Shown in pieces: positions 21,849 through 36,682 of a DNA stretch of 64,000 nucleotides. The DNA is from Leptolyngbya sp. CCY15150. Its GTDB lineage: Bacteria > Cyanobacteriota > Cyanobacteriia > RECH01. The position numbers and the translations under genes are program-made. Positions within the stretch are counted from its first letter, which is position 1. Each line of letters begins with the position of its first letter. The stretch lies in the NCBI RefSeq assembly GCF_016888135.1, contig NZ_JACSWB010000278.1, positions 62,001 through 126,000 on the forward strand, read 5' to 3'. The notes under the pieces are model-generated. The model saw nothing but the letters and a program-made list of their open reading frames with translations, was not told where the DNA came from and did not search any database.

Positions 21849-21881
21849 GGTGCGTTACGGCTACGCCTAACCGCACCCTAC
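21849..21881. repeat. copy 1 of a dispersed imperfect palindrome
   Basis: GGTGCGTTACGGC followed by GCCTAACCGCACC and CTAC forms an imperfect palindrome between the convergent TspO-like and hybrid-kinase genes. Related copies lie at 40897-40930 and 58731-58760. Such elements resemble the REP-like or miniature repeats common in filamentous cyanobacteria. Confidence 0.65.
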
Positions 21882-22981
21882 ACCATGGTTGATTGGGATC
21901 CACCGACGTAGATTGGTAGTGAAATCGTAAACACCGAACCCTGAGGATGATTGTCATCCACCCGAATATCGCCACCGTGGGCTTCCACCGCTAGCTTGCA
22001 GAAGGCTAGTCCTAGCCCCAGTTGGGTCACGCCCTCAGCACTCATGCCCGTTTCATACTTCTCGAAAATAATCTGTCTGAGGTCAAGGCGTACGCCGGTA
22101 CCCTGATCCGCCACCTGAATAATAGTGGACTGATCCAACGAATCGGCTTTGAGAACAACTTGGCTGCCCTTGGGAGAAAACTTGACGGCATTGGACAGTA
22201 AGTTATCAATCACCCGGCGCAGCATAGTGGCATCGACGTGAACCGGATTTAACTGAGCCGGTAAGTCTCCCACAAGGTCTAGATGTTTTTGCTGGGCGAT
22301 CGCTTCAAATTCTTCCAAGGCTTTTTTACATAGATGTCTCAAGTCCACCGTAGTGCGATCGACCAGCATCTGACCATCTTCGATGCGCGCCATGATCAAC
22401 AGGTCATCAATCAGGGCTTGCAATTGGCGAGCGGCGGTCATAATCTGCTCAGCTTTATGGTGCTGTTTCGCTGCGGTGAGCTGACCGCTTTGCAGCATAT
22501 CTGCCGATAGCACGATGCTAGATAGGGGCGTGCGCAGATCATGGACAATCATATTGACCATATCTTCGCGCAGTCTCAACAGGTTTTGCACGCTTGCATA
22601 TTGCTGGCGGATGCGCAGCATGGAATTGACCCTAGCCCGCAGTTCTGTGCCGTTGACGGGTTTGCTGATAAAGTCATCGGCTCCGGCATTCAAACAGCGC
22701 GATAAGTCATCCTTACTAGTTAATGCCGTCACCATAATGATCGGAATTCCCTGCCACTGGGGATCAGCTTTGATGATCTGACAGGCTTCGATGCCGCTCA
22801 TGTGGGGCATCATCACATCCATCAAAATGACATCAGGCTGAATATCCTGTAAGCGAGCTATGGCACGGCTGCCGCTGGAAGCATAGGATAGCTGGATGTT
22901 GTCATCGTGCAAAAAAGTGTCGATGACATCAAAATTATCGGGCTCGTCATCGATAACTAGAATGGACGCTGAGATTGTCAT
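21878..22981 (-). CDS. hybrid response regulator / histidine kinase
   Basis: 367 residues. A receiver domain (1-122, phosphoacceptor D55 in LMDVMM, conserved K107) is followed by a dimerisation/phosphoacceptor domain with H147 in VHDLRTPLSS and a HATPase domain (about 255-360) with the N-box LLSNAVKFSP and the GLGLAFC box. It lies 88 bases downstream of the large sensor kinase on the same strand. The receiver is the likely target of the sensor, with the output being its own kinase domain, so a relay to an unseen regulator is expected. Confidence 0.93.
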   Translation of the reverse strand: MTISASILVIDDEPDNFDVIDTFLHDDNIQLSYASSGSRAIARLQDIQPDVILMDVMMPHMSGIEACQIIKADPQWQGIPIIMVTALTSKDDLSRCLNAGADDFISKPVNGTELRARVNSMLRIRQQYASVQNLLRLREDMVNMIVHDLRTPLSSIVLSADMLQSGQLTAAKQHHKAEQIMTAARQLQALIDDLLIMARIEDGQMLVDRTTVDLRHLCKKALEEFEAIAQQKHLDLVGDLPAQLNPVHVDATMLRRVIDNLLSNAVKFSPKGSQVVLKADSLDQSTIIQVADQGTGVRLDLRQIIFEKYETGMSAEGVTQLGLGLAFCKLAVEAHGGDIRVDDNHPQGSVFTISLPIYVGGSQSTMV

Positions 22982-23069
22982 ACCAAAATACCGTTTTCAT
23001 AAATCATTCGGAACGGTGCTACAGGTGGATTGGGTGAGTCTAGATCCGTTGATGAGGGTTGGGAGATGC

Positions 23070-26000
23070 TCATTCAGGATGCGGCAAAAGCTGTTGAATC
23101 GTTTCTAACAGCAGCTTTAACCGAATTGGTTTGGTTAAGTAATCGTTGGCCCCAGCCGTGAGGCATCGATCGCGATCGCCTGGCATGGCCAAGGCTGTCA
23201 TTGCAAGGATGGGCATGGTGGGGGAGATGGTAGTTCGAATTTGATGAATGGCATCTAGTCCGCTCAGTCCAGGCATTTGAATATCCATGAGGATCAAGTC
23301 TGGTGTTTGGACTTGGGCCATGTTGACGGCCTCATACCCATTATGGGCATAAATGAGATGGTAGCCTTTGAGGGTGAGGTAGTCGGCGATCGTTTCAATA
23401 TTGGCTGGGTTGTCTTCTGCGACCAGAATGACAGGGTCATGATGATGGTTAGGGTAGCTGGGCGTAATGACGGTAGGACTGAGGCGATCGCCCCCGTCTT
23501 GTGTCGGCAAGAGACGACGAATGGCCGCATGGAGATGGACTCGGGTAATGGGTTTGACTAAGTAATCCACTGCTCCTAATGCTAACCCTTGATCTTGCTC
23601 ATCTACCACTGAGGCAATGATGACCGGGATGTGAGCTGTGGCCGGGATATCCTTGAGCTGGGTTAAGATCTCCCAGCCGGACGCCTCTGGCAGCAGGAGG
23701 TCTAGAATAATTAATGACGGCATGAACGTCTTGGCTTGAGCGATCGCATCCTCCCCACATCGGCAAACCGTAGAAGACATTCCTAGCTCGGTTAAATAAC
23801 GCTGGAGCTGATCTGCCACGTCTTGTGAATCTTCAATAATCAGAACCGATCGCATATTCGTTCGTGGCGCGATCGCAAGGGGACTGGCTTCCTTCTCGGT
23901 AGATGGGGCGGGAGGATGGACGTAGGGAATCTGTACTGAGAAGCAGCTCCCTTGTCCTGGGGTGCTATCGACGGTGATATGGCCGCCGTGGAGATCTATT
24001 AAACGTTTGACCAAAGACAGCCCCAGTCCGGTGCCCGTATGTTTTCGATTGAGGGCGCTATCAATTTGGACAAACGGCTGGAAGAGCTTCGTGCGATCGC
24101 TCTCGGCAATGCCGATGCCCGTATCGTTGATCGAGAAAACAACGCTTGGCAGGGTCGATAGGTGGGATGGGCTAGACGGATCGGGAGGTTGTGCAGGAGG
24201 TTGGCTCGTGACGGTAAGGGAAACAACGCCGCCATCAGGGGTAAACTTCACGGCATTCACCAGCAAGTTAATTAAAATTTGCCGCAAACGACGCTCATCG
24301 GCATAGAGGGATGTCACCCCCTGAATGTGATGCTCTAGGTGAATATGTTTCCGCATCGCCTCTTCTTGCACGAAGGCTAAGCTAGCTTGGCAGAGGGTGC
24401 TGATGGATACGAGGCTAGGCTGGAGCTCCAGCTTGCCTGCCTCGATTTTGGATAGGTCAAGAATGTCGTTAATCAGCTCTAGTAAATGCTGTCCACTGCG
24501 CTCAATGGTGGCGATCGCCTTCTGTTGTCGAGGATTCAGCGCTCCGAAAATATCCTCCTGTAGCCCCTCCGACATGCCCAAAATGGCATTGAGGGGGGTG
24601 CGCAGTTCATGGCTCATGCTGGCTAAGAACTCATCCTTGAGCCGGGTGGCCCGCTCTAGCTCTAGGTTGGCGCGGCTGAGCTGGTCGTTCTGAATTTGGA
24701 TGCGCTGCTGGGCTTCTTGCCGTTTGGTAATATCAAAATTAATGCCGACCATGCGCACGGGCTGACCCTGGGCACTACGCTGCACCTGCCCGTAGGCTTT
24801 AATGAAGCGTGGGCTGCCATCGGGCCAGACAATTCGAAAGGTAGCGTCAAACTCTTGCTCTCCTTGGAGCGCTTGCGCTAGAACGAGCTCAGTAGCTTGA
24901 CGATCCTCGGGATGAAGGTTTTGCTGCCAATCTGCGCCGCTTTTGACAGGATCATCGAGCGATCGCCCATGCAGACGATACATTTGCTCATCCCAGACTA
25001 AATGATCCTGCAGCAAGTCCCATTCCCAGATGCCGATCGCGCCCGACTTGAGCGCTAGGGCTAACCGTTCTGACACCTGCCGCAACTGCTGCTCATCGTG
25101 CTTGCGATCGGTAATATCGCGGCCTGCGGATTGATATTCCAAGAGCTGACCTTGGTCGTCAAAAATGGCGCGATCGGTCCACAATTGCCAAGCCGTCGTG
25201 CCATCGGGTAGCAGGACGCGGTGCTCATAGGTCACGGTGGGGCTCTCTGGAGTCAGGCCTAGCACCTTCGTGCGCACAAAATCTAGCTCATCATCAGGGA
25301 TATATTGCCAGATGGCATTGTTATCTGGCAGGGTGGTGTCTAGATTGAAATAGCGACGGTAGGCGGTGTTGGCAAAACTGAGGGAACCATCCGGGCGAAA
25401 GCGGCAAATCATCTCTGTTTGGTCTTCCACGATCGCTCGATAGCGGGTCTCGCTGCGCTGTAGCGCTAGTTCAATGCGTTTGCGATCGGTAATGTCATGC
25501 CCCACCGATTGATACTCGATCACCTGTCCTTGATCGTCAAACATGGCCCGATCCGTCCATAGCTGCCAGCGCTCTTCACCGCTAGCCGTCAAGGTTTTTT
25601 GCTCGGTGGTGATGGTTGGTGTTTCGGGAGTCAGGTGGGACAGCAGTTGCTGGAGGCAAGCATATTCTTCAGGTGGTACCAGTTGCTCAAGAGAGTAACC
25701 AATGCCGATCTCTGGATCAATCTGTACATATTGACAGTAGGCATAGTTTGCAAAGGTGAGCCGACCGTCTGGCAAGAAACGACAAATTAAGTCCGTTTGG
25801 TCTTCCACAACGGCGCGGTAGCGAGCTTCGCTACATTTGCGTTTCATGTCGGCAAGTTTACGATCGGTGATATCGAGGACTGTACCGACGAAGCGGCTGA
25901 GTTGCCCGCTGGCATCAAAGATGGGTTCTCCCCGAGCTGCCACCCAGCCTCGGGATCCATTGGGCCGGTGAAATTCAATTTCTAGGCTATAGGGTATTTG

Positions 26001-27083
26001 CTGGGCGATCGCCTGCTCCAACACGTGGCGGTGATGCAGGCGGGCTTCTGGGCTAAAACGAGCCTCAAGCTGCTCCAGGGTCGGTTCGCCATCGGCTGCC
26101 TCAAAGCCAAAGACCACAAAGCTTTGGGGTGACCAGGTGATTGCTCCGGTCTGAATATCAAACTCCCAACTGCCTAGATTGGCGATGCGCTGGGCGGCAC
26201 TGAGATGGGCCGCTTGCTGCTTCAGGCGCTGCTCAATCTGTTTTTGCTCCGTGATATCAATGACATATCCCACAATTTCAACGGGGATGCCTTGGGGATC
26301 AAACACCATCCGCAAACCGCTACCGAGCCAGAGATAGTGACCGTCGTGGTGTAAAAAACGATACTCGTGCTTTTGAACGCCTTGGGTCGGCAAGAGCGCT
26401 AGGGCACTGAGGAGGCGATCGCGATCGTCAGGATGGAGGCGATCGCTCCAAAGATTGGGCTCTTGGACAAACATCTGGGGCGAATATCCCAGCAGTTCCT
26501 GGATGTTTGCACTGACAAAGGTAGTTTTGTAGTTGTCCCCTGGATGACAGGTGAACATGACCGCAGGACTGGTGGCGATCATGCTTTGGAGGCGAGAGCA
26601 GGGGACTGGAACTCCTAGGAGAATTGGTTGAGGGGTGGGTAGGGAGGCGCTGAGCTGATCCCCAAGCATGTGCAGCATATGGGCCGTATCTAGACAACCG
26701 ATGATCTGCCCTTGATCGATGACTGGAAGGCAGCATCGGCTTGCCTGCTGCATGCGGGGTAGGAGGCTGGGAAGATGGGTCACCTCTGCTAAGGGAATAG
26801 GGCTTGGGGGAGGTGCCATCATCTCGCCGACGAGCGTTTGGGCGGGGATCCGTCCGGCAGCTAAGGCGGCTACTATATCGCGATCGCTCACCAGCCCCAC
26901 CAAGGTGTCTTGCTCCATCACAAGGGCACAGCAACCTGACGATGCGACCGCTGCATGGTGAGATGTCCGAAACCGTTCGATGTCAGCAATCGCTTTATCT
27001 AGGGTTGTTGTGCTAGAAAGCACGGGTAAATTGCGGGCGATCGCTAGATTGATCTGCCCGCTGGAGGAGCTTAAACCGCGCAT
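23070..27083 (-). CDS. large hybrid sensor kinase: CBS pair, five PAS, HisKA/HATPase, two receivers
   Basis: 1,337 residues from the ATG at 27083; a TTG at 27116 would add 11 residues, and neither has a clear RBS. From the N-terminus: two CBS repeats (about 20-155), five PAS domains of which the third and fourth are near-duplicates (YRAVVEDQTDLICRF and YRAIVEDQTEMICRF), a HisKA box MSHELRTPLNAILGM, a HATPase domain, and two receivers (LIILDLLLP and LILMDIQMP). There is no membrane segment, so it senses cytoplasmic signals, possibly adenine nucleotides through CBS and redox or light through PAS cofactors. It heads a two-gene operon. Confidence 0.93.
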   Translation of the reverse strand: MRGLSSSSGQINLAIARNLPVLSSTTTLDKAIADIERFRTSHHAAVASSGCCALVMEQDTLVGLVSDRDIVAALAAGRIPAQTLVGEMMAPPPSPIPLAEVTHLPSLLPRMQQASRCCLPVIDQGQIIGCLDTAHMLHMLGDQLSASLPTPQPILLGVPVPCSRLQSMIATSPAVMFTCHPGDNYKTTFVSANIQELLGYSPQMFVQEPNLWSDRLHPDDRDRLLSALALLPTQGVQKHEYRFLHHDGHYLWLGSGLRMVFDPQGIPVEIVGYVIDITEQKQIEQRLKQQAAHLSAAQRIANLGSWEFDIQTGAITWSPQSFVVFGFEAADGEPTLEQLEARFSPEARLHHRHVLEQAIAQQIPYSLEIEFHRPNGSRGWVAARGEPIFDASGQLSRFVGTVLDITDRKLADMKRKCSEARYRAVVEDQTDLICRFLPDGRLTFANYAYCQYVQIDPEIGIGYSLEQLVPPEEYACLQQLLSHLTPETPTITTEQKTLTASGEERWQLWTDRAMFDDQGQVIEYQSVGHDITDRKRIELALQRSETRYRAIVEDQTEMICRFRPDGSLSFANTAYRRYFNLDTTLPDNNAIWQYIPDDELDFVRTKVLGLTPESPTVTYEHRVLLPDGTTAWQLWTDRAIFDDQGQLLEYQSAGRDITDRKHDEQQLRQVSERLALALKSGAIGIWEWDLLQDHLVWDEQMYRLHGRSLDDPVKSGADWQQNLHPEDRQATELVLAQALQGEQEFDATFRIVWPDGSPRFIKAYGQVQRSAQGQPVRMVGINFDITKRQEAQQRIQIQNDQLSRANLELERATRLKDEFLASMSHELRTPLNAILGMSEGLQEDIFGALNPRQQKAIATIERSGQHLLELINDILDLSKIEAGKLELQPSLVSISTLCQASLAFVQEEAMRKHIHLEHHIQGVTSLYADERRLRQILINLLVNAVKFTPDGGVVSLTVTSQPPAQPPDPSSPSHLSTLPSVVFSINDTGIGIAESDRTKLFQPFVQIDSALNRKHTGTGLGLSLVKRLIDLHGGHITVDSTPGQGSCFSVQIPYVHPPAPSTEKEASPLAIAPRTNMRSVLIIEDSQDVADQLQRYLTELGMSSTVCRCGEDAIAQAKTFMPSLIILDLLLPEASGWEILTQLKDIPATAHIPVIIASVVDEQDQGLALGAVDYLVKPITRVHLHAAIRRLLPTQDGGDRLSPTVITPSYPNHHHDPVILVAEDNPANIETIADYLTLKGYHLIYAHNGYEAVNMAQVQTPDLILMDIQMPGLSGLDAIHQIRTTISPTMPILAMTALAMPGDRDRCLTAGANDYLTKPIRLKLLLETIQQLLPHPE

Positions 27084-27116
27084 GGGAGAAATAAAGTAAT
27101 AGGCTTCAGCACTCAA

Positions 27117-27739
27117 CCATCAACTTAGAAAAAATGGTGAGGATGGTGATGGTTCTTACTGTTATCTTAAATGCTGCAAGAAAGCCTGCCAAAGGTAATT
27201 CTGCGGATTCATGGCCGGGAGCGATTGTGAAGAAATGATTGAGCTGGGGGATGAATGGGGGATGAAGTATGAAGCGCAATTCATCGTTGACCCCATCGCC
27301 CGCGATCGCCCGCGATCGGAGAACAGAGGTTTGACCTTGATGGGTTCGAAGGGGGGGATCGCGACGTCAGGATCCCCTATCCCAAGATTACAACTCTCCA
27401 CATTCCTGTGGAAGTTTTCCACAGGTTTTCCACAGGAAAAGCGAGTTTTCCACAGGAAATGGCATAGTTTTCCACAGGCGCTTGGGAAAAACCTGTGGAA
27501 AACCTGTGGAAAACCAACATGATTATTTAAGTTAAATGACGGGCGTTGTCCTTGAACTAACGTCGAACTAACGTCCCATCTCATCTACAGAGTGTCGTTT
27601 CATATGGAGACCCAGCGATCGCACCCCGGCGATCCATTGTAAGCGATCTGAGGGACTGGATTGCTCCAGTTTCCCTCAAGGCTCGTTCACGTTTCGCTGG
27701 TTGTTGGGGGACTCTACCTAGGGGCGATCGCTATCCTGC
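27117..27739. other. gene-free region holding a DnaA-box cluster
   Basis: About 620 bases between the start of the sensor kinase and the 3' end of guaA, both leftward. The centre (27394-27540) holds the DnaA-box cluster and an AT-rich segment. Near 27300-27320 CGCCCGCGAT is directly repeated around HIP1-like sites. Overlapping open frames on both strands (27162-27584 and 27211-27522) are low-complexity by-products of the repeats and not genes. Confidence 0.8.
27394..27540. promoter_or_regulatory. DnaA-box cluster with adjacent AT-rich segment (candidate oriC or DnaA-binding locus)
   Basis: Six perfect copies of the cyanobacterial DnaA box TTTTCCACA: forward at 27415-27423, 27426-27434, 27446-27454 and 27468-27476; reverse at 27494-27502 and 27505-27513. 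Two weaker copies lie at 27394-27402 and 27407-27415. All six share the longer form GTTTTCCACAGG. Spacings of 11, 20, 22 and 11 bases suggest sites close to helical phase. An AT-rich stretch (27517-27536) follows directly, like a duplex-unwinding element. Known cyanobacterial origins use this box; neither dnaA nor dnaN lies in this window. Confidence 0.8.
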
Positions 27740-29347
27740 CTATTCCCACTCGATGGTGCCTGGGGGCTTGGACGTAATATCGTACACAACGCGATTGACG
27801 CCCTTCACTTCGTTGACAATCCTCGTGGAAATGGCTTCTAGCAAATCGTAGGGCGCACGCGACCAATCAGCCGTCATGCCATCTTCACTAGAAACGCAGC
27901 GCAGCACGATTGGGTAAGCGTAGGTGCGTTGATCGCCCATCACTCCCACGCTGCGAATGGGCAGCAGCACAGCGAAGGCTTGCCAGAAGTCGTTATACAG
28001 ACCGCGTTGGTTGATCTCCTGCCGCACGATGAAATCCGCATCGCGCAGGATGCTCAGCTTTTCTGCCGTCACTTCGCCCAGAATGCGAATGGCTAGACCC
28101 GGGCCTGGGAAGGGATGGCGTTTGACAATCTCTTCGGGAAGACCGATGGACAGCCCGACTTTGCGCACTTCGTCTTTAAACAATTTGCGCAGGGGCTCGA
28201 CGAGCTTGAAGCGCAGATCCTTGGGTAGCCCACCCACGTTGTGGTGGCTCTTGATCTTCACCGCCACCCGCTCTCCAGTTTTGGGATCAACGTTGGTGTC
28301 GGCTGACTCGATCACATCAGGGTAGAGGGTGCCCTGGGCTAGGTAGTCGAAGGGGCCAAGACGCTTGGATTCTTCTTCAAAAACCTGAATGAACTCGTGG
28401 CCAATGCGCTTACGTTTTTCCTCGGGATCGCTGATGCCTTCAATGACTGCCAAGAAGCGATCGCGGGCCTGAACGTGTACCACGGGAATGTGGAACTGTT
28501 CGTGGAACAATTTCACCAGGCGCTCTGGCTCATACTTGCGCATGAAGCCTTGGTCGATAAACATGCAGGTGAGCTGATCCCCGATGGCCTGGTGCAGCAA
28601 AAAGGCTAGAGTTGAGGAGTCAACGCCGCCGGATAGCGCCAGCAGCACCCGCTTCTCGCCAATGCGGGCCCGGATTTCACGAATAGCATCTTCTACAAAC
28701 GCTTCGGTTGTCCAAGTTGGTTCGCAACAACAGACGTGATAAACAAAGTTGCGAATCAGCGCCAGACCGCCGATGGAATGCACCACTTCGGGATGGAACT
28801 GGACGCCGTAGAGCTTGCGCTCATGGTGGGCGATCGCGGCGCAGGGAGTATTGTCGGTGTGGGCGAGCAGCTCAAAGCCATCGGGCAACGCCTTGACGGA
28901 GTCTCCATGACTCATCCACATGGTGGTGCCGTCGTCTACGTTGGTGAGGAGATCGGTGGGATCATCGATGTAGAGCGATGCCTTGCCATATTCACCGCGC
29001 AGGGCCCGCTCAACGCTGCCACCCAACTGTTCTACCATCAACTGCATACCGTAGCACACCCCTAGAACAGGGATGCCCAGATCCCAAATTTTGGGATCGC
29101 AGTGGGGAGCGTTGTCGTCATAGACGGAGCTTGGACCACCCGATAGAATAATGCCCTTGGGATTGAGTTGCTGGAGTTGCTCAACCGTGGTGCGGTAGGA
29201 AAGCACTTCAGAATAGACTTGGGTTTCGCGAATTCGTCGAGCAATGAGTTCAGAATATTGCGAGCCAAAGTCGAGGATCACAATCATCTGACGGGTGATG
29301 TGCTCAGTGGTGTAAGCGTCGGGTGGAAGTTGGGTTTGGAGAGTCAC
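27740..29347 (-). CDS. guaA: GMP synthase (glutamine-hydrolysing)
   Basis: 535 residues from a GTG start. The glutamine amidotransferase half has the nucleophile in GVCYGMQLM and FHPEV. The ATP-pyrophosphatase half has the P-loop [11 protein letters not shown], and the dimerisation part ends in the diagnostic KPPGTIEWE. It converts XMP to GMP. The reading frame is complete. The 285 bases upstream contain TATATA-like sequence near 29522-29530 that may be its promoter. Confidence 0.98.
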
Positions 29348-29632: not shown

Positions 29633-32600
29633 CTAGGGGTTGGTCTGGACATCAAATAATGAGGAGCTATCCTGTTGATCCACGTTGCGACATAGGGCGC
29701 GATCGCCATCGAGCTGTCGAAGATAATCCTGAACCCATGCACAGGCATAGTCGATCTCTGTGATCTCAAGGATTTCGGTCAGATCCCAAATCATCAGCCT
29801 GCCGTCATGCCCGCCGGAAATGAGGCGATCGTCCATGCCGCCAAACCCTAGGGCGACTATGCTGCCGCGATGACCGCTGAGGATGGCGCTGATGGCGGTA
29901 TTACGGGCATTATGGTCTAAATTCCAGACCTGAATCATACCGTCTTCCCGACTAGCGGCTAGACGGTTGCCGCTGGGGCTAAAGCTGATGCGATGGATGG
30001 GGCTGGAATAGTTGGTGATCGAACCGGTTGGGGTTAGCTTGCTGTCCGAGTCGATCTGCCAAAGCTTCACCGATCCATCAATGCTGGCGGTAGCTATTGT
30101 CTGCCCTTGAGGACTGAAAGCAGCGTCGGCGATCGCTTGGTCATGCGCCGGTAGGGTCTGCAGACGTTTGCCTTCCAAATCCCAAAGAAAGAGGTTTTGA
30201 CCACCGCCGACCATAATCCAATCTCTGGTGGGATGGGCGTCGAGACCTAGCAATCGTTGGTCTTCCTCGGTAGACAGCACCTGCAGCATCTGTCCGCTGA
30301 GATCCCAAATCCGCACGGTGCCATCTGCTCCGCTAGAAATGAGGCGATCGCCCCTAGCGTTGAATATGAGATCATGAATGGCTCCCTCGTGGCCGTCTAA
30401 ACGTTGTGCCAACGTTATGTCTAGGGTATCCACCGCCCCTGCATCGGTGAGTTGGGTCATGTCATCAGCGATCGCCCATAGAAGGATGCGTCCCTCATGG
30501 TCTCCTGAGGCGAGATAGCTGCCATTGGGGCTAAAGGCAACGGCTTCCACAGTATCGTTGTGCTCGGTGAGTTCTTGAAGCTGTTGGCCGGTCTGCCGCC
30601 ATAGACGTACCCGTTGATCGCCGCTGGCGGTGGCAATGATGCCGCTGGCTGTATGGACGGCATGGTCATTGATTTCCCAATTAGGATGGGCGTTAATGAT
30701 GCGGCGGCGGGTATTTTGTTGCCAGAGTCGCAGGGTGCGATCGGCGCTGACGGAGGCGATCGCACCGGTGGGATGTACGGCTAGATCTAAGACCTGATGC
30801 TCATGACCCAAAAATGTTTCCTTGAGGACGCCATCTGTAGACCAGAGATGAATGCGTCGGTCGCGTCCAGCGGAGACGAGGGTGTCGCGATCGGCAAAGG
30901 CGAGGGCTTCGATTCTGCTGACATGGGCTGATGAGATTGTCCCGACCTGAACACCGGCTGCATCCCAGAGGGTGACGGTGCCATTTTGAGCGCCCGCTGC
31001 AATCAGGTCGCCGTCGGGATGGATGGCGATCGCTGAAATGGATCCGGTATCCGTCGTCATTTGCCGTAGCAGGTCTCCCGTTAGTGACCATTGGTCTATC
31101 CCGCGGTCATGGCTGGTGAGGATGGTTTGGCCATCGGGCATCATGGCGACTTGGGTCACGGAGCCATCTGGCAGGGGCGTGGTTTGCTGGACTTGGCCAT
31201 CGAGTGTCCAGCGCTTCATGGTCTGATCTTGTCCTACCGAGAGCAGATGTGCCCCATCGGGACTGTAGACCATACTGACCACGCCTCCAGGGTGGGCTTC
31301 GGGGATGGTGGAGGTGAGAGTACCGTCTAGCGACCACTGTTTGAGGGTGCCATCCTCACTGGCGGTCAGTACAGATTGGCTGGTGGGATGAAATAGAACT
31401 TGGGTGATGGGGCGATCGCTCCTATGGCCAAAGCTTGCCTTGAGGTCGCCCTGAACCGTCCAGATCGTTCCGGTGCCATTTTCGTAGGATACCGCCATCC
31501 ATTGCCCATCGGGACTGAAGGCGACGCTGGTTGGGATGTCGGCAGTGCTAATTCGGTTAAATTCCTGAATACTGTAGACAACTTGCCGCAGGGCAAGATC
31601 GACTTGGTTGCGTGCTGCTACGGTGTCGGCTTGCTGAGTTAGCCAGTAATCGCTGCGTTGCCTTGCTTGCAAAACCTCGACGAGGGCATCGAGATGATTA
31701 TTATCGTTGGATAAGATACGGCTATAGAGACTCGTGATCTTCACCGTTTGGATGGATGACCGACGATATTCTGACAGAGCAACGCCCACAGCTCCCAGCA
31801 GCGCAAACAGACCGAGGGTGACCACCTGCAGCAGCAGGCGCTGGCGTTTAAATGATTGTTGTTCAGCCGCTAGCCGTCCTTCCGCTTCTTGAGCTCGTTC
31901 TTCCTGGAGTTTCAGCAGAATAGCCTGCTTACGGCTTTCCTCGGCGGTGATGGTGTCGGCAAGCTGCTGGCTGGCATTAATAAACTGTCGCTGCAGCTTG
32001 GTAACAGGGGGATTTTTCTGGGTATCGTCCGCCTCTCTGAGCCAGGTATTAGCGATCGCCAACTCACTGCCCCGCAACAGCAGATCGGGGTTTTTCTGTT
32101 TATCTCCCCAAGCGATCGCCCTCTGAAGCCAGTGGGTATGGCTATGGACATGGTCGCGATCGACCTCTAGCATCCGCACCAGTTCACTAAAGTTGATGGT
32201 GAAGCTACCGCCATCGTCACTAAAATCGATGGGGGGAATTCCCTTCAGGATGTCTGGCAGTTCGTCGCTGAGTCCGTAGGGTAAGACGGGAATAATTCGC
32301 TTGTTGATTTGGAGAGCGTGATGTACTTCTGACTCATGATTGGGAAGATCAAGGGTATAGGGCGCAATGATGACCAGGACGTTATCACAGGTTTCTAGCC
32401 CATGCAGCACCTCGGCATCCGCGCCAAGACGGGATTCTACATTATCTTGATCAAACCAGGTGGTCTTTCCTTGAAGCTGTAGTGCTTCATTGAGCCGCCG
32501 CGCAAAATCTGCTTCCTCCATGGGATAGGAAATAAAGACGTCCAGCGATTCTTCAGGCGGATGACTGAGACTGGCGTTGATGTAGTCCTGTTGTAGAGAG

Positions 32601-33931
32601 GTGGGGGGATGGTCGGGATTTTGCTGGGTGCTCTTGAGCCATGCCTCGGCTTGTTCTAGACGATAGCCTCGTAATAAGATGCTGGTATTTCGGTTCTGAT
32701 CGCGCCATTTGAGGGCGCGGGTGAGCAAGATTTTATGAAGTTCGTAATACTGGGCGTTATCCTGAAGGGTAGCAATTAGTTTATCTAAACTGGCGTGATA
32801 ATGAATCGGATCATCCGCTTGGCTAAAGTCAATAAACTGCAGCGATCGCAACTGCAGCGGTAGGGCATGAACGGGGGCATCCTCTTCTAGCTTGGTGTAA
32901 ATTGCATCTAGACCGCGTCGGTTGCGCCGAGAGGATGATGTTAATGCGTCGATCGCTTCCATCTGTAGGGGAATGATCCGTTTGTGATGGCTGAAGGCAT
33001 GGGCTAACTGATGCTGACAGTCGTCGCTGCTGAGGGATGCCTGGGAGAGCAGATAGACAACGGCGTCGGCTCCTTCAATGCCGCGATCGCTCACCGCCTG
33101 CGTATCTTCTCCGGTGCGAATGTCGGTGGTGTCTGTCCAAACCGTAAAGCCCTTGCGCATCAGGCTTCGCCGAATGTTCTCCATACGGGGGCGATCGCTG
33201 TCGGCGTAGCATAGAAATACCTGCGCCATCAAGTTATTGGCGTTTTTGATGCTCTCGCAGATAAATTCACAGTGGAGATCGGTGGGTTCGCAGGGGGCTT
33301 GCTCGGTGGTGAACTGAACGCGTAGCCAGTCTTCTCCTAGGAGGCGATCGCGCCCGGTGAGTAAGTAACGTGATTGCTGTTGATTGCGAGACCAAGTGAG
33401 AGCTTGGTTTAGGAAAACCGTATGGCGATGGACATAGTCGCGATGACGATGCATAACCTCCAACAGCCCGGCAAAGGAGGTGTCAAAATCATCCATGCCC
33501 TCTCGGAAATAAACCCAATTAATTTTGCCAATCACGGGATGCATGTTGGGAAAGCTGGAGTGCAATCCTTGGGCTTGGTAGTCTTGCCATTGGGCGATCG
33601 TCTGGCTGGGGTAGCGCTGCTGCCACGTTTCGTAGGAAATTTGCTCAACGTGTAAGAGCGGAATAATCCGTTTCTGGCAGTTCAGGGCTAACTCAATTTC
33701 CTTACCGCAGTAGGGAGAGTTAACCGCGTGGGGAGCGATAATAAATAAGAAGTTATGAGACTGCTCAATGCCAACGTCAATTTGATTTTGAAAATCAACT
33801 CCCAGGGGAATATTGTTTTGGTCGAACCAAATATCAAGGTCATGGTTCACCAAGTGGGCGTGGAGTTTTTTGGCAAACACGAGGCTGTCGGCACGGCCGT
33901 AGGAGATAAACGCATCCTGGAAGTCGGGCAT
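29633..33931 (-). CDS. triple-TIR / transmembrane / 14 WD40-repeat protein
   Basis: 1,432 residues from the ATG at 33931, where the first TIR domain begins (MPDFQDAFISYGRAD); an upstream start would add 53 non-conserved residues. Three TIR domains lie at about 4-145, 234-375 and 462-575, each followed by a similar helical module (about 150-230, 380-455, 585-655). A charged coiled coil (660-698) leads to one membrane segment (about 700-720), then 14 WD40 repeats (about 798-1385), enough for two seven-bladed propellers. Position-matched catalytic Glu is E78 in TIR1 and E535 in TIR3, but Q308 in TIR2. Bacterial TIRs often cleave NAD+ in immunity; here that is an inference. Confidence 0.92.
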   Translation of the reverse strand: MPDFQDAFISYGRADSLVFAKKLHAHLVNHDLDIWFDQNNIPLGVDFQNQIDVGIEQSHNFLFIIAPHAVNSPYCGKEIELALNCQKRIIPLLHVEQISYETWQQRYPSQTIAQWQDYQAQGLHSSFPNMHPVIGKINWVYFREGMDDFDTSFAGLLEVMHRHRDYVHRHTVFLNQALTWSRNQQQSRYLLTGRDRLLGEDWLRVQFTTEQAPCEPTDLHCEFICESIKNANNLMAQVFLCYADSDRPRMENIRRSLMRKGFTVWTDTTDIRTGEDTQAVSDRGIEGADAVVYLLSQASLSSDDCQHQLAHAFSHHKRIIPLQMEAIDALTSSSRRNRRGLDAIYTKLEEDAPVHALPLQLRSLQFIDFSQADDPIHYHASLDKLIATLQDNAQYYELHKILLTRALKWRDQNRNTSILLRGYRLEQAEAWLKSTQQNPDHPPTSLQQDYINASLSHPPEESLDVFISYPMEEADFARRLNEALQLQGKTTWFDQDNVESRLGADAEVLHGLETCDNVLVIIAPYTLDLPNHESEVHHALQINKRIIPVLPYGLSDELPDILKGIPPIDFSDDGGSFTINFSELVRMLEVDRDHVHSHTHWLQRAIAWGDKQKNPDLLLRGSELAIANTWLREADDTQKNPPVTKLQRQFINASQQLADTITAEESRKQAILLKLQEERAQEAEGRLAAEQQSFKRQRLLLQVVTLGLFALLGAVGVALSEYRRSSIQTVKITSLYSRILSNDNNHLDALVEVLQARQRSDYWLTQQADTVAARNQVDLALRQVVYSIQEFNRISTADIPTSVAFSPDGQWMAVSYENGTGTIWTVQGDLKASFGHRSDRPITQVLFHPTSQSVLTASEDGTLKQWSLDGTLTSTIPEAHPGGVVSMVYSPDGAHLLSVGQDQTMKRWTLDGQVQQTTPLPDGSVTQVAMMPDGQTILTSHDRGIDQWSLTGDLLRQMTTDTGSISAIAIHPDGDLIAAGAQNGTVTLWDAAGVQVGTISSAHVSRIEALAFADRDTLVSAGRDRRIHLWSTDGVLKETFLGHEHQVLDLAVHPTGAIASVSADRTLRLWQQNTRRRIINAHPNWEINDHAVHTASGIIATASGDQRVRLWRQTGQQLQELTEHNDTVEAVAFSPNGSYLASGDHEGRILLWAIADDMTQLTDAGAVDTLDITLAQRLDGHEGAIHDLIFNARGDRLISSGADGTVRIWDLSGQMLQVLSTEEDQRLLGLDAHPTRDWIMVGGGQNLFLWDLEGKRLQTLPAHDQAIADAAFSPQGQTIATASIDGSVKLWQIDSDSKLTPTGSITNYSSPIHRISFSPSGNRLAASREDGMIQVWNLDHNARNTAISAILSGHRGSIVALGFGGMDDRLISGGHDGRLMIWDLTEILEITEIDYACAWVQDYLRQLDGDRALCRNVDQQDSSSLFDVQTNP

Positions 33932-34142: not shown

Positions 34143-35798
34143 CTAATGTCGCCAGCGGGCTCGATAGCCTCGGGCGTCGAGGTGGCTGAGGCTGGGAAAG
34201 CTGGTGTAGCGACCGAGTCCGCCGGGCCACCATGGATCGAGCGACCAATAGAGCTGATCGCCGGTGAGGCCATCGCAGTAAAAATCGATGGCATCGCCTA
34301 CAATATGCCGACTTTCCGATGCACCCCCCACCCGGCGGTTAATATCGGGTGGACGATACCAGCTGGTGATGCGGAAGGGGCGACCAATGCGATCGCGGGC
34401 CTGTTGAGCCAGGGTAGCGATGCGGATAATGGCGTTCACCGTGGCCTGATCCGGGGGCATCCTCGTGCCGCCGTGGGTGGCTTCTGCCCAGGTAAAGTTG
34501 CCGTTGGGAATAATCGAGGCGTGGATTTGAATATTGGACGGTGTCCATCGAGCTGGACGGGGCGGTGTTGGGGGCGGCTGGGGTGCTGGGGCGGCATCGG
34601 GGGAGCCGCGCTGGGCCGTTTGCATGCGGCGCACGTCTTCGAGCAGGGTTTGAATGGCCGCATCCCGCGAGTCTACATTACGCCAGAGCTGGACTAAGCG
34701 GATCAAAGCATTGCGCTGGCTTTCCTTTTCTTGGTAGGAGCCGGGTACCCGCTGGACAAAATTGACGAGTTCGCGATCGAGCTGGGCGGCAATGCTGGCG
34801 AGGCGATCGCGATCAACATCTCCGGAAAACACTTGGGGGCTGACGCCCAGGGAAATCAGGGCGCTGGTGCGAGAATCGAGGGCCCGCCAGAGCCGGACCC
34901 CTTCGGTGAGGGCATTGCGCTGCTCGGCTCGCCCAGCATAGAACTGGGGAATGCGCTGCATGAAGGCCACCAAGGCAGGATCAACAATGCTGGGGCTGGA
35001 AAGGGCGGAGTTATTTTCCCGAAGGGAGGCGATCGCTTCTTCCCGAGATTCGAGCTGCCGCCAGAGCTGCACCATGCGAATCATGGATTCTCGCTGGTGG
35101 GGATAGCCGCTGTAGTAGCGCGGCACGTTGAAGATAAACTGCAGCAGCGGTTGATCGAGGCTGGTTAGGTCTGTAGGAGGTGCGCCGTCGGTGGTGTTTT
35201 GCAGGGCTGAGAAGACCGCCTGACGGCTGCCCAGCTTGCGCCACATGCGAAAGGCTTCCAGCAAGGCATCCCGCTGAAACTGTAGACCTTGGTAGTAGCG
35301 GGGCACTCGTTCGGCAAAGGTGAGCAGGGCACCATCGAGATAGACTAAGTTCTGCGGTAGTTCTGCCCCTTGATAGTCAATCGTCAGGTCTTCGATGTAG
35401 GCTTCTGTTAGCCGCAGACCATCGGTGGCTTCGAGCAAGGCCGCTTCGGTGTCATTGGATGGCGGTGAATAGCCTTCAGCGATCGCTTGAATGAATCGAT
35501 CGGCATAGCGGCCGCGATCAGCATTCCACAGGTCGGTGCCCCGCCAGCCTTGGGCCGTCAGGCGATCGGTGATACTGCGCACCGTGTTGGCGGCATACTG
35601 AACCTGTCCGGCAAAGGTGGCGAGATCGGCGGCGGGAATGCGATGAATGGGATAGACGCCCAGCCCTGTTTCGCCGCTGTCAAGCTGGGGCGCACCGTGG
35701 GCACTGTAGAGCGCCGCCAATATGGGTTTATGGATACCGTTACGTTCAGCCTCTATTAGGTAGTAGTAGTTACGCTGATCGGGAGACAGTTTTGCCAT
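34143..35798 (-). CDS. M15 family D-Ala-D-Ala carboxypeptidase-like protein with four internal repeats
   Basis: 551 residues from the ATG at 35798 (35810 also possible). An N-terminal domain (1-150) is followed by four repeats of about 60 residues (cores at about 154-200, 214-260, 272-316, 341-386) with the pattern hydrophobic-VPxYY-G-QR-AL-WR-L-SR. A proline-rich linker precedes the C-terminal M15A domain (about 425-551) with SRHIVGDAIDF and SLSHLDARG supplying zinc ligands. M15A enzymes trim peptidoglycan peptides. No signal peptide is visible. It lies 212 bases upstream of the TIR gene on the same strand. Confidence 0.85.
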   Translation of the reverse strand: MAKLSPDQRNYYYLIEAERNGIHKPILAALYSAHGAPQLDSGETGLGVYPIHRIPAADLATFAGQVQYAANTVRSITDRLTAQGWRGTDLWNADRGRYADRFIQAIAEGYSPPSNDTEAALLEATDGLRLTEAYIEDLTIDYQGAELPQNLVYLDGALLTFAERVPRYYQGLQFQRDALLEAFRMWRKLGSRQAVFSALQNTTDGAPPTDLTSLDQPLLQFIFNVPRYYSGYPHQRESMIRMVQLWRQLESREEAIASLRENNSALSSPSIVDPALVAFMQRIPQFYAGRAEQRNALTEGVRLWRALDSRTSALISLGVSPQVFSGDVDRDRLASIAAQLDRELVNFVQRVPGSYQEKESQRNALIRLVQLWRNVDSRDAAIQTLLEDVRRMQTAQRGSPDAAPAPQPPPTPPRPARWTPSNIQIHASIIPNGNFTWAEATHGGTRMPPDQATVNAIIRIATLAQQARDRIGRPFRITSWYRPPDINRRVGGASESRHIVGDAIDFYCDGLTGDQLYWSLDPWWPGGLGRYTSFPSLSHLDARGYRARWRH

Positions 35799-35893
35799 AG
35801 CCAACCCCATGATTCCGTAGTATCGAGATGATCCCGAGGCGATCGCGACGGATTGCCAGGCGATCGCGACCCGTTCTTCATCCCCAAGTGTAT

Positions 35894-36682
35894 ATGCAGG
35901 ACTACCCACTGACCGAGCGCTTGCCCAACTTTGCTCCTGATTTTCTCAAAAAAGTGGGGCTGATTGCCACCGATATGGACGGCACCCTCACCCGCCATGG
36001 GCGATTTACCTCCCAGCTACTCCAGACCCTGGAGGCGCTGAAAGCAGCGAATATTCCCGTGGTGATCACCACAGGGCGATCGGCAGGATGGGTGCAGGGC
36101 TTGGTCAACTATCTGCCGGTGCAGGGGGCGATCGCTGAAAATGGCGGACTTTTCTACGCCCATGGCAATGCTGCGCCAGAGTGGCTGAGCGAGATTTCCG
36201 ATCGGCCCAGCCATCGCCCAGCCCTGGCCCAGATGTTTGCCAATCTACAGGACGAGTATCCCCACCTGCAAGCATCCACCGATAACCACTTTCGGCTGAC
36301 GGATTGGACGTTTGACGTGGGAGAACTATCGGCGGTGGATCTACAGCGCTTGGGCGATCGCTGCCAGCAGGAGGGCTGGGGTTTCACCTACAGTACCGTG
36401 CAGTGTCACATTCGACCGCTGGCGCAAAACAAAGGGCAAGGATTGCTAGCCGTGCTACAGCACCATTTTCCCCAATACCCTCCACATTTAGTGGTGACCG
36501 TGGGCGATAGTCCCAATGATCAAGAATTGTTTCAGGACTTTCAAAACGGAGTGGGGGTGGCCAATCTACAGCCCTATCTCGATCGCCTCACCTATCGCCC
36601 TGCCTACCTCACTCTGGGGGAAGAAATTGATGGATTTTGCCAACTGGCGATCGCCCTAATTCAAGCCCGTCCGGGATCCTGA
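35894..36682 (+). CDS. HAD-superfamily (IIB, Cof-like) phosphatase
   Basis: 262 residues from the ATG at 35894; an upstream in-frame start would add a basic tail from HIP1 sequence. HAD motifs are present: I in ATDMDGTLT, II in VVITTGRS, III around KGQGLLAVL, IV in VTVGDSPNDQELF. The IIB cap (about 85-190) fits sugar-phosphate phosphatases. The substrate is unknown; sucrose-6-phosphate or glycosyl phosphates are possibilities only. It diverges from the M15 gene. Confidence 0.9.
   Translation: MQDYPLTERLPNFAPDFLKKVGLIATDMDGTLTRHGRFTSQLLQTLEALKAANIPVVITTGRSAGWVQGLVNYLPVQGAIAENGGLFYAHGNAAPEWLSEISDRPSHRPALAQMFANLQDEYPHLQASTDNHFRLTDWTFDVGELSAVDLQRLGDRCQQEGWGFTYSTVQCHIRPLAQNKGQGLLAVLQHHFPQYPPHLVVTVGDSPNDQELFQDFQNGVGVANLQPYLDRLTYRPAYLTLGEEIDGFCQLAIALIQARPGS

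What the first reader, a model, noticed from the sequence alone, without database searches (positions are those of the whole stretch)
29633..33931. Giant triple-TIR, 14-WD40 protein: candidate NAD-depleting immune or death effector
Seen: three TIR domains, a membrane segment, and 14 WD40 repeats in one 1,432-residue protein. Known: many bacterial TIR domains cleave NAD+ in antiphage or cell-death systems; propellers often act as sensors or scaffolds. Inference: the propellers detect a ligand and multiple TIR domains are activated by clustering at a membrane. Architectures with several TIRs and WD40 exist in other cyanobacteria, but I know of no characterised role for them.
Basis: partly seen in the sequence, partly recalled or inferred. 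Interest (0 to 1): 0.7.

Follow-up and report, generated by a model that had tools for sequence, protein, structure and literature searches.

The report
Triple-TIR transmembrane receptor with outside propellers
A cyanobacterial gene encodes what looks like a membrane receptor whose propeller-shaped sensor sits outside the cytoplasm and whose three TIR domains, relatives of immune NAD-cutting enzymes, sit inside, so it resembles an upside-down Toll-like receptor more than an internal virus detector.

Summary
One ORF (29633-33931, minus strand, 1432 aa) carries three TIR domains, one membrane helix (about 699-721) and 14 WD40 repeats. It belongs to a cyanobacterial family: array matches in 58 of 388 genomes of the class. 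Of 64 family ORFs, 45 end in WD40 propellers and 19 in CHASE2, an extracytoplasmic sensor domain. TIR1 keeps the SARM1-type catalytic Glu in 63 of 63 non-redundant arrays; TIR2 in 56, TIR3 in 52. In this genus TIR2 has lost it.

New point: the propellers are probably outside the cytoplasm. WD40 regions behind a membrane helix hold 13 Cys in 40,055 aa, against 312 in 18,096 aa in helix-free WD40 proteins; nearly all end in one Cys pair. Positive-inside charge and the CHASE2 swap agree. Distant relatives sit near secreted-protein genes and, in 10 of 66 arrays, near SLOG (LSDAT) and/or SLATT (DUF4231) genes.

Most likely: a transmembrane receptor that turns an envelope cue into TIR NAD+ chemistry. 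NADase activity, ligand and any phage role are untested. Prior art: periplasmic WD40 was predicted for planctomycete kinases (PMC11032199).

The parts
29633..33931 (-). triple-TIR / transmembrane / 14-WD40 protein, 1432 aa
33632..33922 (-). TIR1 (residues 4-100); candidate catalytic Glu78 (33698-33700), aligned with the Glu of the KEI motif of the SARM1 TIR
32942..33229 (-). TIR2 (residues 235-330); catalytic position is Gln308 (33008-33010), Lys in both relatives of the genus: probably not catalytic here
32261..32548 (-). TIR3 (residues 462-557); Glu535 kept (32327-32329)
31838..33631 (-). stretch that holds, around TIR2 and TIR3, the helical linker modules that follow each TIR, and the long helix before the membrane
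   Evidence: internal alignment; secondary structure
31769..31837 (-). membrane-spanning helix (residues 699-721) with KRQR before it
   Evidence: hydropathy; flanking charge
29774..31543 (-). 14 WD40 repeats (residues 797-1386), probably two seven-bladed propellers, no cysteine
29690..29743 (-). C-terminal Cys pair Cys1397 and Cys1414, the only cysteines after the membrane helix; predicted disulfide

Best explanation
It is a single-pass membrane receptor. Shown by sequence: three TIR modules, one hydrophobic helix, 14 WD40 repeats without cysteine, and a C-terminal Cys pair. Inferred: the TIR array is in the cytoplasm and the double propeller is outside (periplasm, or thylakoid lumen), closed by a Cys1397-Cys1414 disulfide. 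An envelope or extracellular cue bound by the propellers changes the packing of the array or clusters receptors. TIR1, perhaps with TIR3, then becomes an active NAD+-cleaving site, with TIR2 as a structural partner. The product is either a nucleotide signal read by SLOG-type proteins (suggested by LSDAT and SLATT/DUF4231 genes beside distant relatives) or simple NAD+ loss. Which of the two, and the ligand, are unknown.
For: Topology. (1) WD40 regions preceded by a membrane helix hold 13 Cys in 40,055 aa (68 proteins), against 312 in 18,096 aa in 40 proteins without a helix; even the 19 helix-free proteins with 9 or fewer repeats have 39 in 5,624 aa. The part before the helix in the same 68 proteins has 1.04 Cys per 100 aa, so the depletion is one-sided. 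(2) 65 of 68 carry a C-terminal Cys pair. (3) K+R in the 15 residues before the helix 4.34, after 2.24; before exceeds after in 56 of 68, equal in 10. (4) In 19 of 64 family ORFs the WD40 part is replaced by CHASE2 (6 of 6 scanned by Pfam, 13 by BLAST to those), described in print as extracellular (PMC8195603, PMC5587647, passages). (5) The same helix plus Cys-poor WD40 unit is attached to nSTAND1 NTPases, a protein kinase and AAA_35 domains, which need ATP. (6) Helix-free exceptions with a Cys pair: L118 and L112 have weaker hydrophobic segments at the right place; L134, with no such segment, has lost the pair and has 5 Cys. (7) The genome encodes VKOR. (8) CHASE2 members lie near DUF928, TPS and ShlB genes (DUF928 cluster 14 loci, 13 of them CHASE2-type), and 6 WD40 members beside a DUF2141 gene whose representative has a signal-peptide-like start. 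Chemistry: TIR1 Glu78 invariant 63 of 63 with W35, D37, Y11; nearest solved sequences SARM1 TIR; Foldseek top hit SARM1. Signal: LSDAT within 10 kb of an array for 8 of 59 genes, about 0.30 expected by random placement; DUF4231 9 of 58.
Against: No topology or activity experiment. The helix-linked propellers share ancestry, so low Cys is partly inherited; related sequences were not down-weighted. L037 (a Draconibacterium-labelled MAG contig) has five TIRs, a helix and WD40 but 10 Cys in the 817 aa after the helix, none of them near the C-terminus. In the window's own genome LSDAT is unlinked and no DUF4231 was found; 56 of 66 arrays have neither gene within 10 kb. The Cys-pair region has pLDDT near 30, and the array model has pTM 0.42, so neither disulfide geometry nor TIR packing was modelled reliably. 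Only neighbours in relatives, not this locus, point to the envelope.
Confidence: 0.55

Rival explanations
1. Cytoplasmic immune or death effector: the helix only anchors it, the propellers face the cytoplasm and bind a phage or stress ligand, and clustered TIRs deplete NAD+ to stop infection.
For: TIR and WD40 are common in cyanobacterial conflict proteins (PMC7159879, PMC9218822, passages); PADLOC and NCBIfam give TIR similarity to ThsB, ThcB4 and retron-TIR proteins, for NCBIfam below cut-off; 10 of 66 arrays lie within 10 kb of LSDAT and/or DUF4231 genes, which I recall as conflict genes; one distant member has a Cys-containing propeller.
Against: One-sided cysteine depletion, Cys pair, charge bias and the CHASE2 swap; no defence neighbours found and a syntenic housekeeping position in a sister species.
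Confidence: 0.2
2. Non-enzymatic TIR scaffold receptor: extracytoplasmic propellers as in the best explanation, but the three TIRs only assemble with other TIR proteins, as in MyD88 or Toll-like receptors.
For: TIR2 and TIR3 often lack the catalytic Glu; TIR2's weak solved-structure hits include MyD88, behind two bacterial TIR proteins.
Against: TIR1 Glu78 is invariant in 63 of 63 arrays, unexpected for a pure scaffold.
Confidence: 0.2
3. Ordinary envelope stress or adhesion sensor with no conflict role, using TIR chemistry for regulation. This overlaps with the best explanation in topology and differs in purpose.
For: Neighbour genes for DUF928, TPS/ShlB, CHAT and DUF2141 proteins in relatives; PMC5587647 (passage) links CHASE2, DUF928 and WD40 genes to extracellular signals; housekeeping position here.
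Against: Faster-evolving ectodomain (dN/dS 0.17 against 0.04) also fits a recognition role in conflict; SLOG and SLATT neighbours in some relatives.
Confidence: 0.3

Closest known systems
Animal Toll-like and IL-1 receptors
   Same: Membrane receptor with TIR in the cytoplasm and a repeat ectodomain outside (as described in PMC7075850, passages); here inferred
   Different: N-terminal TIRs, three of them, with a kept catalytic Glu in TIR1; WD40 or CHASE2 ectodomain instead of LRR or Ig; no homology claimed outside TIR
SARM1 and bacterial TIR NADases (AbTIR, ThsB)
   Same: TIR fold; Glu78 aligns with the catalytic region of SARM1
   Different: Three unequal TIRs in one chain with helical linkers, membrane helix and propellers; no activity data
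Planctomycete Ser/Thr kinases with WD40 repeats predicted in the periplasm (PMC11032199, abstract and passages)
   Same: Cytoplasmic signalling domain, single helix, WD40 array predicted in the periplasm
   Different: Kinase instead of TIR; different phylum; the cysteine signature was not in the passages I read
Cyanobacterial STAND-WD40 proteins such as WRAP
   Same: 14 WD40 blades as two propellers; 2ymu, a highly repetitive propeller, is the nearest solved structure
   Different: WRAP follows a STAND ATPase (PMC9218822, passage); no STAND domain appears among the 25 of 54 Pfam matches shown for the window protein
Thoeris (TIR signal read by a SLOG domain)
   Same: TIR gene near a SLOG-type gene in some relatives
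   Different: No ThsA found beside this gene; scores far below family cut-offs; receptor architecture

Membership tests
TIR NADase | TIR fold | tested here: met
   PF13676 three stretches; SARM1 TIR hits
TIR NADase | catalytic Glu of the Ser-x-[WY]-Cys-x-x-Glu region (motif recalled) | tested here: met
   TIR1 63 of 63 arrays; TIR3 52 of 63 and kept here; TIR2 56 of 63 and lost here
TIR NADase | NAD+ cleavage | not testable with these tools
   needs purified protein
Thoeris type III (ThcB4, NF058526) | score above NCBIfam cut-off 220 | tested here: not met
   68.1 bits
Retron TIR (NF042941) | score above cut-off 600 | tested here: not met
   51.6 bits
Thoeris (ThsA/ThsB) | ThsA-like gene beside the TIR gene | tested here: not met
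   PADLOC gave no Thoeris hit in the five neighbouring proteins scanned
Toll-like receptor | ectodomain - helix - cytoplasmic TIR topology | tested here: inconclusive
   Cys, charge and domain-swap evidence only
Toll-like receptor | LRR ectodomain at the N-terminus | tested here: not met
   WD40 at the C-terminus
STAND-WD40 (WRAP type) | STAND NTPase between effector and propellers | tested here: not met
   none among the 25 of 54 Pfam matches shown; the 240 aa between TIR3 and the first repeat hold a membrane helix
VMAP/iSTAND ternary systems | vWA and MoxR partner genes | not tested
   no search for these domains was run

The most novel reading that the evidence does not exclude
A bacterial counterpart of Toll-like receptors: a widespread cyanobacterial receptor family with exchangeable extracytoplasmic sensors (disulfide-closed WD40 double propellers or CHASE2) that converts an outside cue into a NAD+-derived messenger through a three-TIR array with one strictly conserved catalytic TIR, read in some lineages by SLOG (LSDAT) and SLATT pore proteins encoded nearby. 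More broadly, cysteine-free propellers behind a membrane helix would be a common class of exported WD40 sensor in cyanobacteria, fused to TIR, kinase and STAND outputs.
Probability: 0.35. Interest if true: 0.85.

Novelty: new variant of a known kind. Interest (0 to 1): 0.62.

Why it matters
The bacterial TIR systems in the papers whose passages I read are intracellular sensors or effectors. A family that carries TIR output across a membrane from an exported propeller would show that receptor-TIR coupling exists in bacteria with a different ectodomain, and gives a clean system for asking how an outside signal switches a TIR enzyme. The cysteine test is also a simple way to call the side of the membrane on which bacterial WD40 propellers sit.

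Tried and rejected
Viral homologues: a profile scan of viral contigs found no relative. Genome contigs gave only two named loci, L036 and L037. A Thoeris-like partner next to the window gene was looked for and not found. LSDAT and SLATT as the partner in this species: not shown, since LSDAT is unlinked and DUF4231 was not found. Equal roles for the three TIRs: rejected on the Glu counts. Cysteine poverty as a general property of WD40 repeats: rejected for long helix-free proteins (273 Cys in 12,472 aa for those with 11 or more repeats) and weakened for short ones (39 in 5,624 aa). The type tally (45 and 23) wrongly counts single-TIR loci as CHASE2 and is not used; one search is. In one search, L071 and L075 were put in the wrong class and truncated ORFs were included, so counts come. 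AlphaFold models were too weak for domain packing. No Rfam match in the window; promoter and terminator matches at shuffle level or below.

Sampling limits: the control set came from 60 regions that I chose from a truncated list in six genomes, plus the family loci; identical sequences, truncated ORFs and proteins with fewer than 5 repeats were dropped (112 ORFs with matches, 110 kept: 68, 40 and 2 'other'). The LSDAT and DUF4231 searches used 46 of the 58 genomes with arrays and 66 array places taken; the expectation assumes uniform placement and ignores clustering of such genes. One search aligned 69 arrays, 63 after removing those 90% or more identical. One search scanned 6 of the 19 CHASE2-type members.
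Full report
OBSERVATION. The finding is real. The minus-strand ORF ending at 29633 translates to 1432 aa from the ATG at 33931. Pfam gives TIR_2 in three stretches (E 3.1e-60) and WD40 in 12 (E 1.9e-88); a repeat model built here finds 14 repeats (797-1386) and three TIRs (4-100, 235-330, 462-557). One hydrophobic segment peaks at residue 699 (2.34 on the Kyte-Doolittle scale). A helical linker follows each TIR, so the N-terminal half is a three-fold repeat of TIR plus linker. The C-terminal model lists 55 strands, as expected for about 14 blades, and its nearest solved structure is 2ymu, a highly repetitive propeller.

GENOME AND CONTEXT. The window lies in a 5.75 Mb assembly. An orthologue with a 96% identical array is in L036, labelled Leptolyngbya sp. 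DLM2.Bin15; G002 contig C372 has the same length as that record and an ORF of the same length, so L036 and L098 were treated as one. The gene lies between an M15-type peptidase gene (34143-35909) and guaA (27740-29347), in the same order in G002 (guaA named from its sequence by me). No tRNA is in the window. PADLOC gave no hit in four of five neighbouring proteins scanned and weak hits inside a histidine kinase. A 42% identical paralogue lies on contig C162.

FAMILY. A search of 388 genomes of the class found arrays (E <= 1e-30) in 58. I fetched loci for most of them. Among 64 family ORFs longer than 800 aa, 43 are three-TIR WD40, 14 three-TIR CHASE2, 5 five-TIR CHASE2, one five-TIR WD40 (L037) and one two-TIR WD40 (L068, whose first TIR is in a separate ORF). 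CHASE2 was confirmed by Pfam in 6 of 6 scanned. The array is thus the constant part and the sensor is exchanged.

TIR CHEMISTRY. HMMER aligns TIR1 with the SARM1 TIR so that Glu78 falls on the Glu of its KEI motif; that this is SARM1 Glu642, the catalytic residue, I take from knowledge, with the title of 7cm7 ('NAD+-bound Sarm1 E642A') in agreement. In 63 non-redundant arrays Glu is kept in TIR1 63 times, TIR2 56, TIR3 52; W35, D37 and Y11 are invariant in TIR1. In this genus TIR2 has Gln (window) or Lys (both relatives). So TIR1 is the likely catalytic unit; TIR2 is likely structural here. Activity is inference.

SIDE OF THE MEMBRANE. After the helix the window protein has two cysteines, Cys1397 and Cys1414; before it, eight. 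To test whether this is merely how WD40 repeats look, I collected other WD40 proteins. With a helix in front: 68 proteins, 13 Cys in 40,055 aa. Without a helix: 40 proteins, 312 in 18,096 aa (Mann-Whitney P about 5e-16, not corrected for relatedness). The N-terminal parts of the 68 have 1.04 Cys per 100 aa. A C-terminal Cys pair is found in 65 of 68; by the same loose pattern it is also scored in 11 of 40 helix-free proteins, several of them Cys-rich and so plausibly by chance. Two helix-free proteins with Cys-free repeats and a pair, L118 and L112, have a weaker hydrophobic segment at the expected place; L134 has none, has lost the pair and has 5 Cys. Positive charge is heavier before the helix (4.34 against 2.24 per 15 residues). 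The N-terminal partners of the same module include nSTAND1, AAA_35 and protein kinase domains, all ATP users. The genome encodes VKOR. Against this, L037 has 10 Cys after its helix; it may have another topology or a less oxidising envelope (speculation).

NEIGHBOURS IN RELATIVES. Of 63 loci examined for neighbours within 6 kb, 14 have a member of the DUF928 cluster, 7 of the ShlB cluster, 6 of DUF2141, 6 of LSDAT_prok and 4 of DUF4231 (one representative of each named by Pfam). DUF928 and ShlB neighbours go almost wholly with CHASE2 members (13 of 14, 7 of 7), DUF2141 with WD40 members (6 of 6); two pairs of these loci are near-identical relatives. L167 shows TPS-like, ShlB-like, CHAT-TPR-like and receptor genes in a row, with LSDAT and DUF4231 genes divergent (read by eye from translations, with LSDAT and DUF4231 placed). 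In 46 genomes, 8 of 59 LSDAT genes lie within 10 kb of an array, about 0.30 expected; 9 of 58 DUF4231 genes do; 10 of 66 arrays have one or both. LSDAT is a SLOG-type domain by its Pfam description; [quoted passage not shown]

MECHANISM. Shown: parts, conservation, cysteine and charge asymmetry, sensor swap, neighbours. Inferred: orientation, disulfide, ligand sensing, activation by rearrangement or clustering, TIR1 catalysis, messenger output. The part after the helix changes about four times faster relative to synonymous change than the array (0.17 against 0.04), as expected of a sensor, yet both are constrained.

PRIOR WORK. Searches for TIR with WD40 and cyanobacteria, periplasmic WD40 TIR, CHASE2 with TIR, prokaryotic WD40 transmembrane, bacterial TIR receptor, LSDAT with SLATT and TIR, repetitive propellers and a mixed query showed me no description of this receptor family in the held library, which lacks most subscription papers. 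Passages read: PMC7159879, PMC10907252, PMC8195603, PMC5587647, PMC7075850, PMC11032199, PMC9218822, PMC7517822, PMC9153377, PMC13174449. PMC11032199 already predicts periplasmic WD40 arrays on planctomycete kinases, so the topology idea is not wholly new; its use with TIR arrays and the cysteine evidence appear to be, as far as those searches go.

VERDICT. Observation confirmed; interpretation partly supported. A new variant of known kinds (TIR signalling proteins, single-pass bacterial receptors).

Noticed in passing
window 21878-27116: Two large histidine-kinase-type genes (one multi-PAS hybrid kinase of 1348 aa, one response-regulator/kinase) lie downstream of guaA on the same strand.
   Followed up: no
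window 27425-27515: Short tandem repeats (periods 20 and 11) in a 140 aa ORF region of doubtful coding value between guaA and the hybrid kinase.
   Followed up: no
L166 5106-9784: A family-like locus in which a TIR ORF and a WD40 ORF with nearly identical repeats are separate neighbours, possibly a recently amplified and disrupted propeller.
   Followed up: no
L056, L061, L064, L070, L071: CHASE2-type members with five TIR domains in one chain: array length varies in this family.
   Followed up: partly
L088 6017-7925: LSDAT gene next to a gene whose translation looks like a patatin-like phospholipase (by eye), beside a triple-TIR WD40 gene.
   Followed up: no
L134 2422-5964: AAA_35-WD40 protein without membrane helix that lacks the C-terminal Cys pair and has cysteines in its repeats: a natural control for the topology test.
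   Followed up: yes
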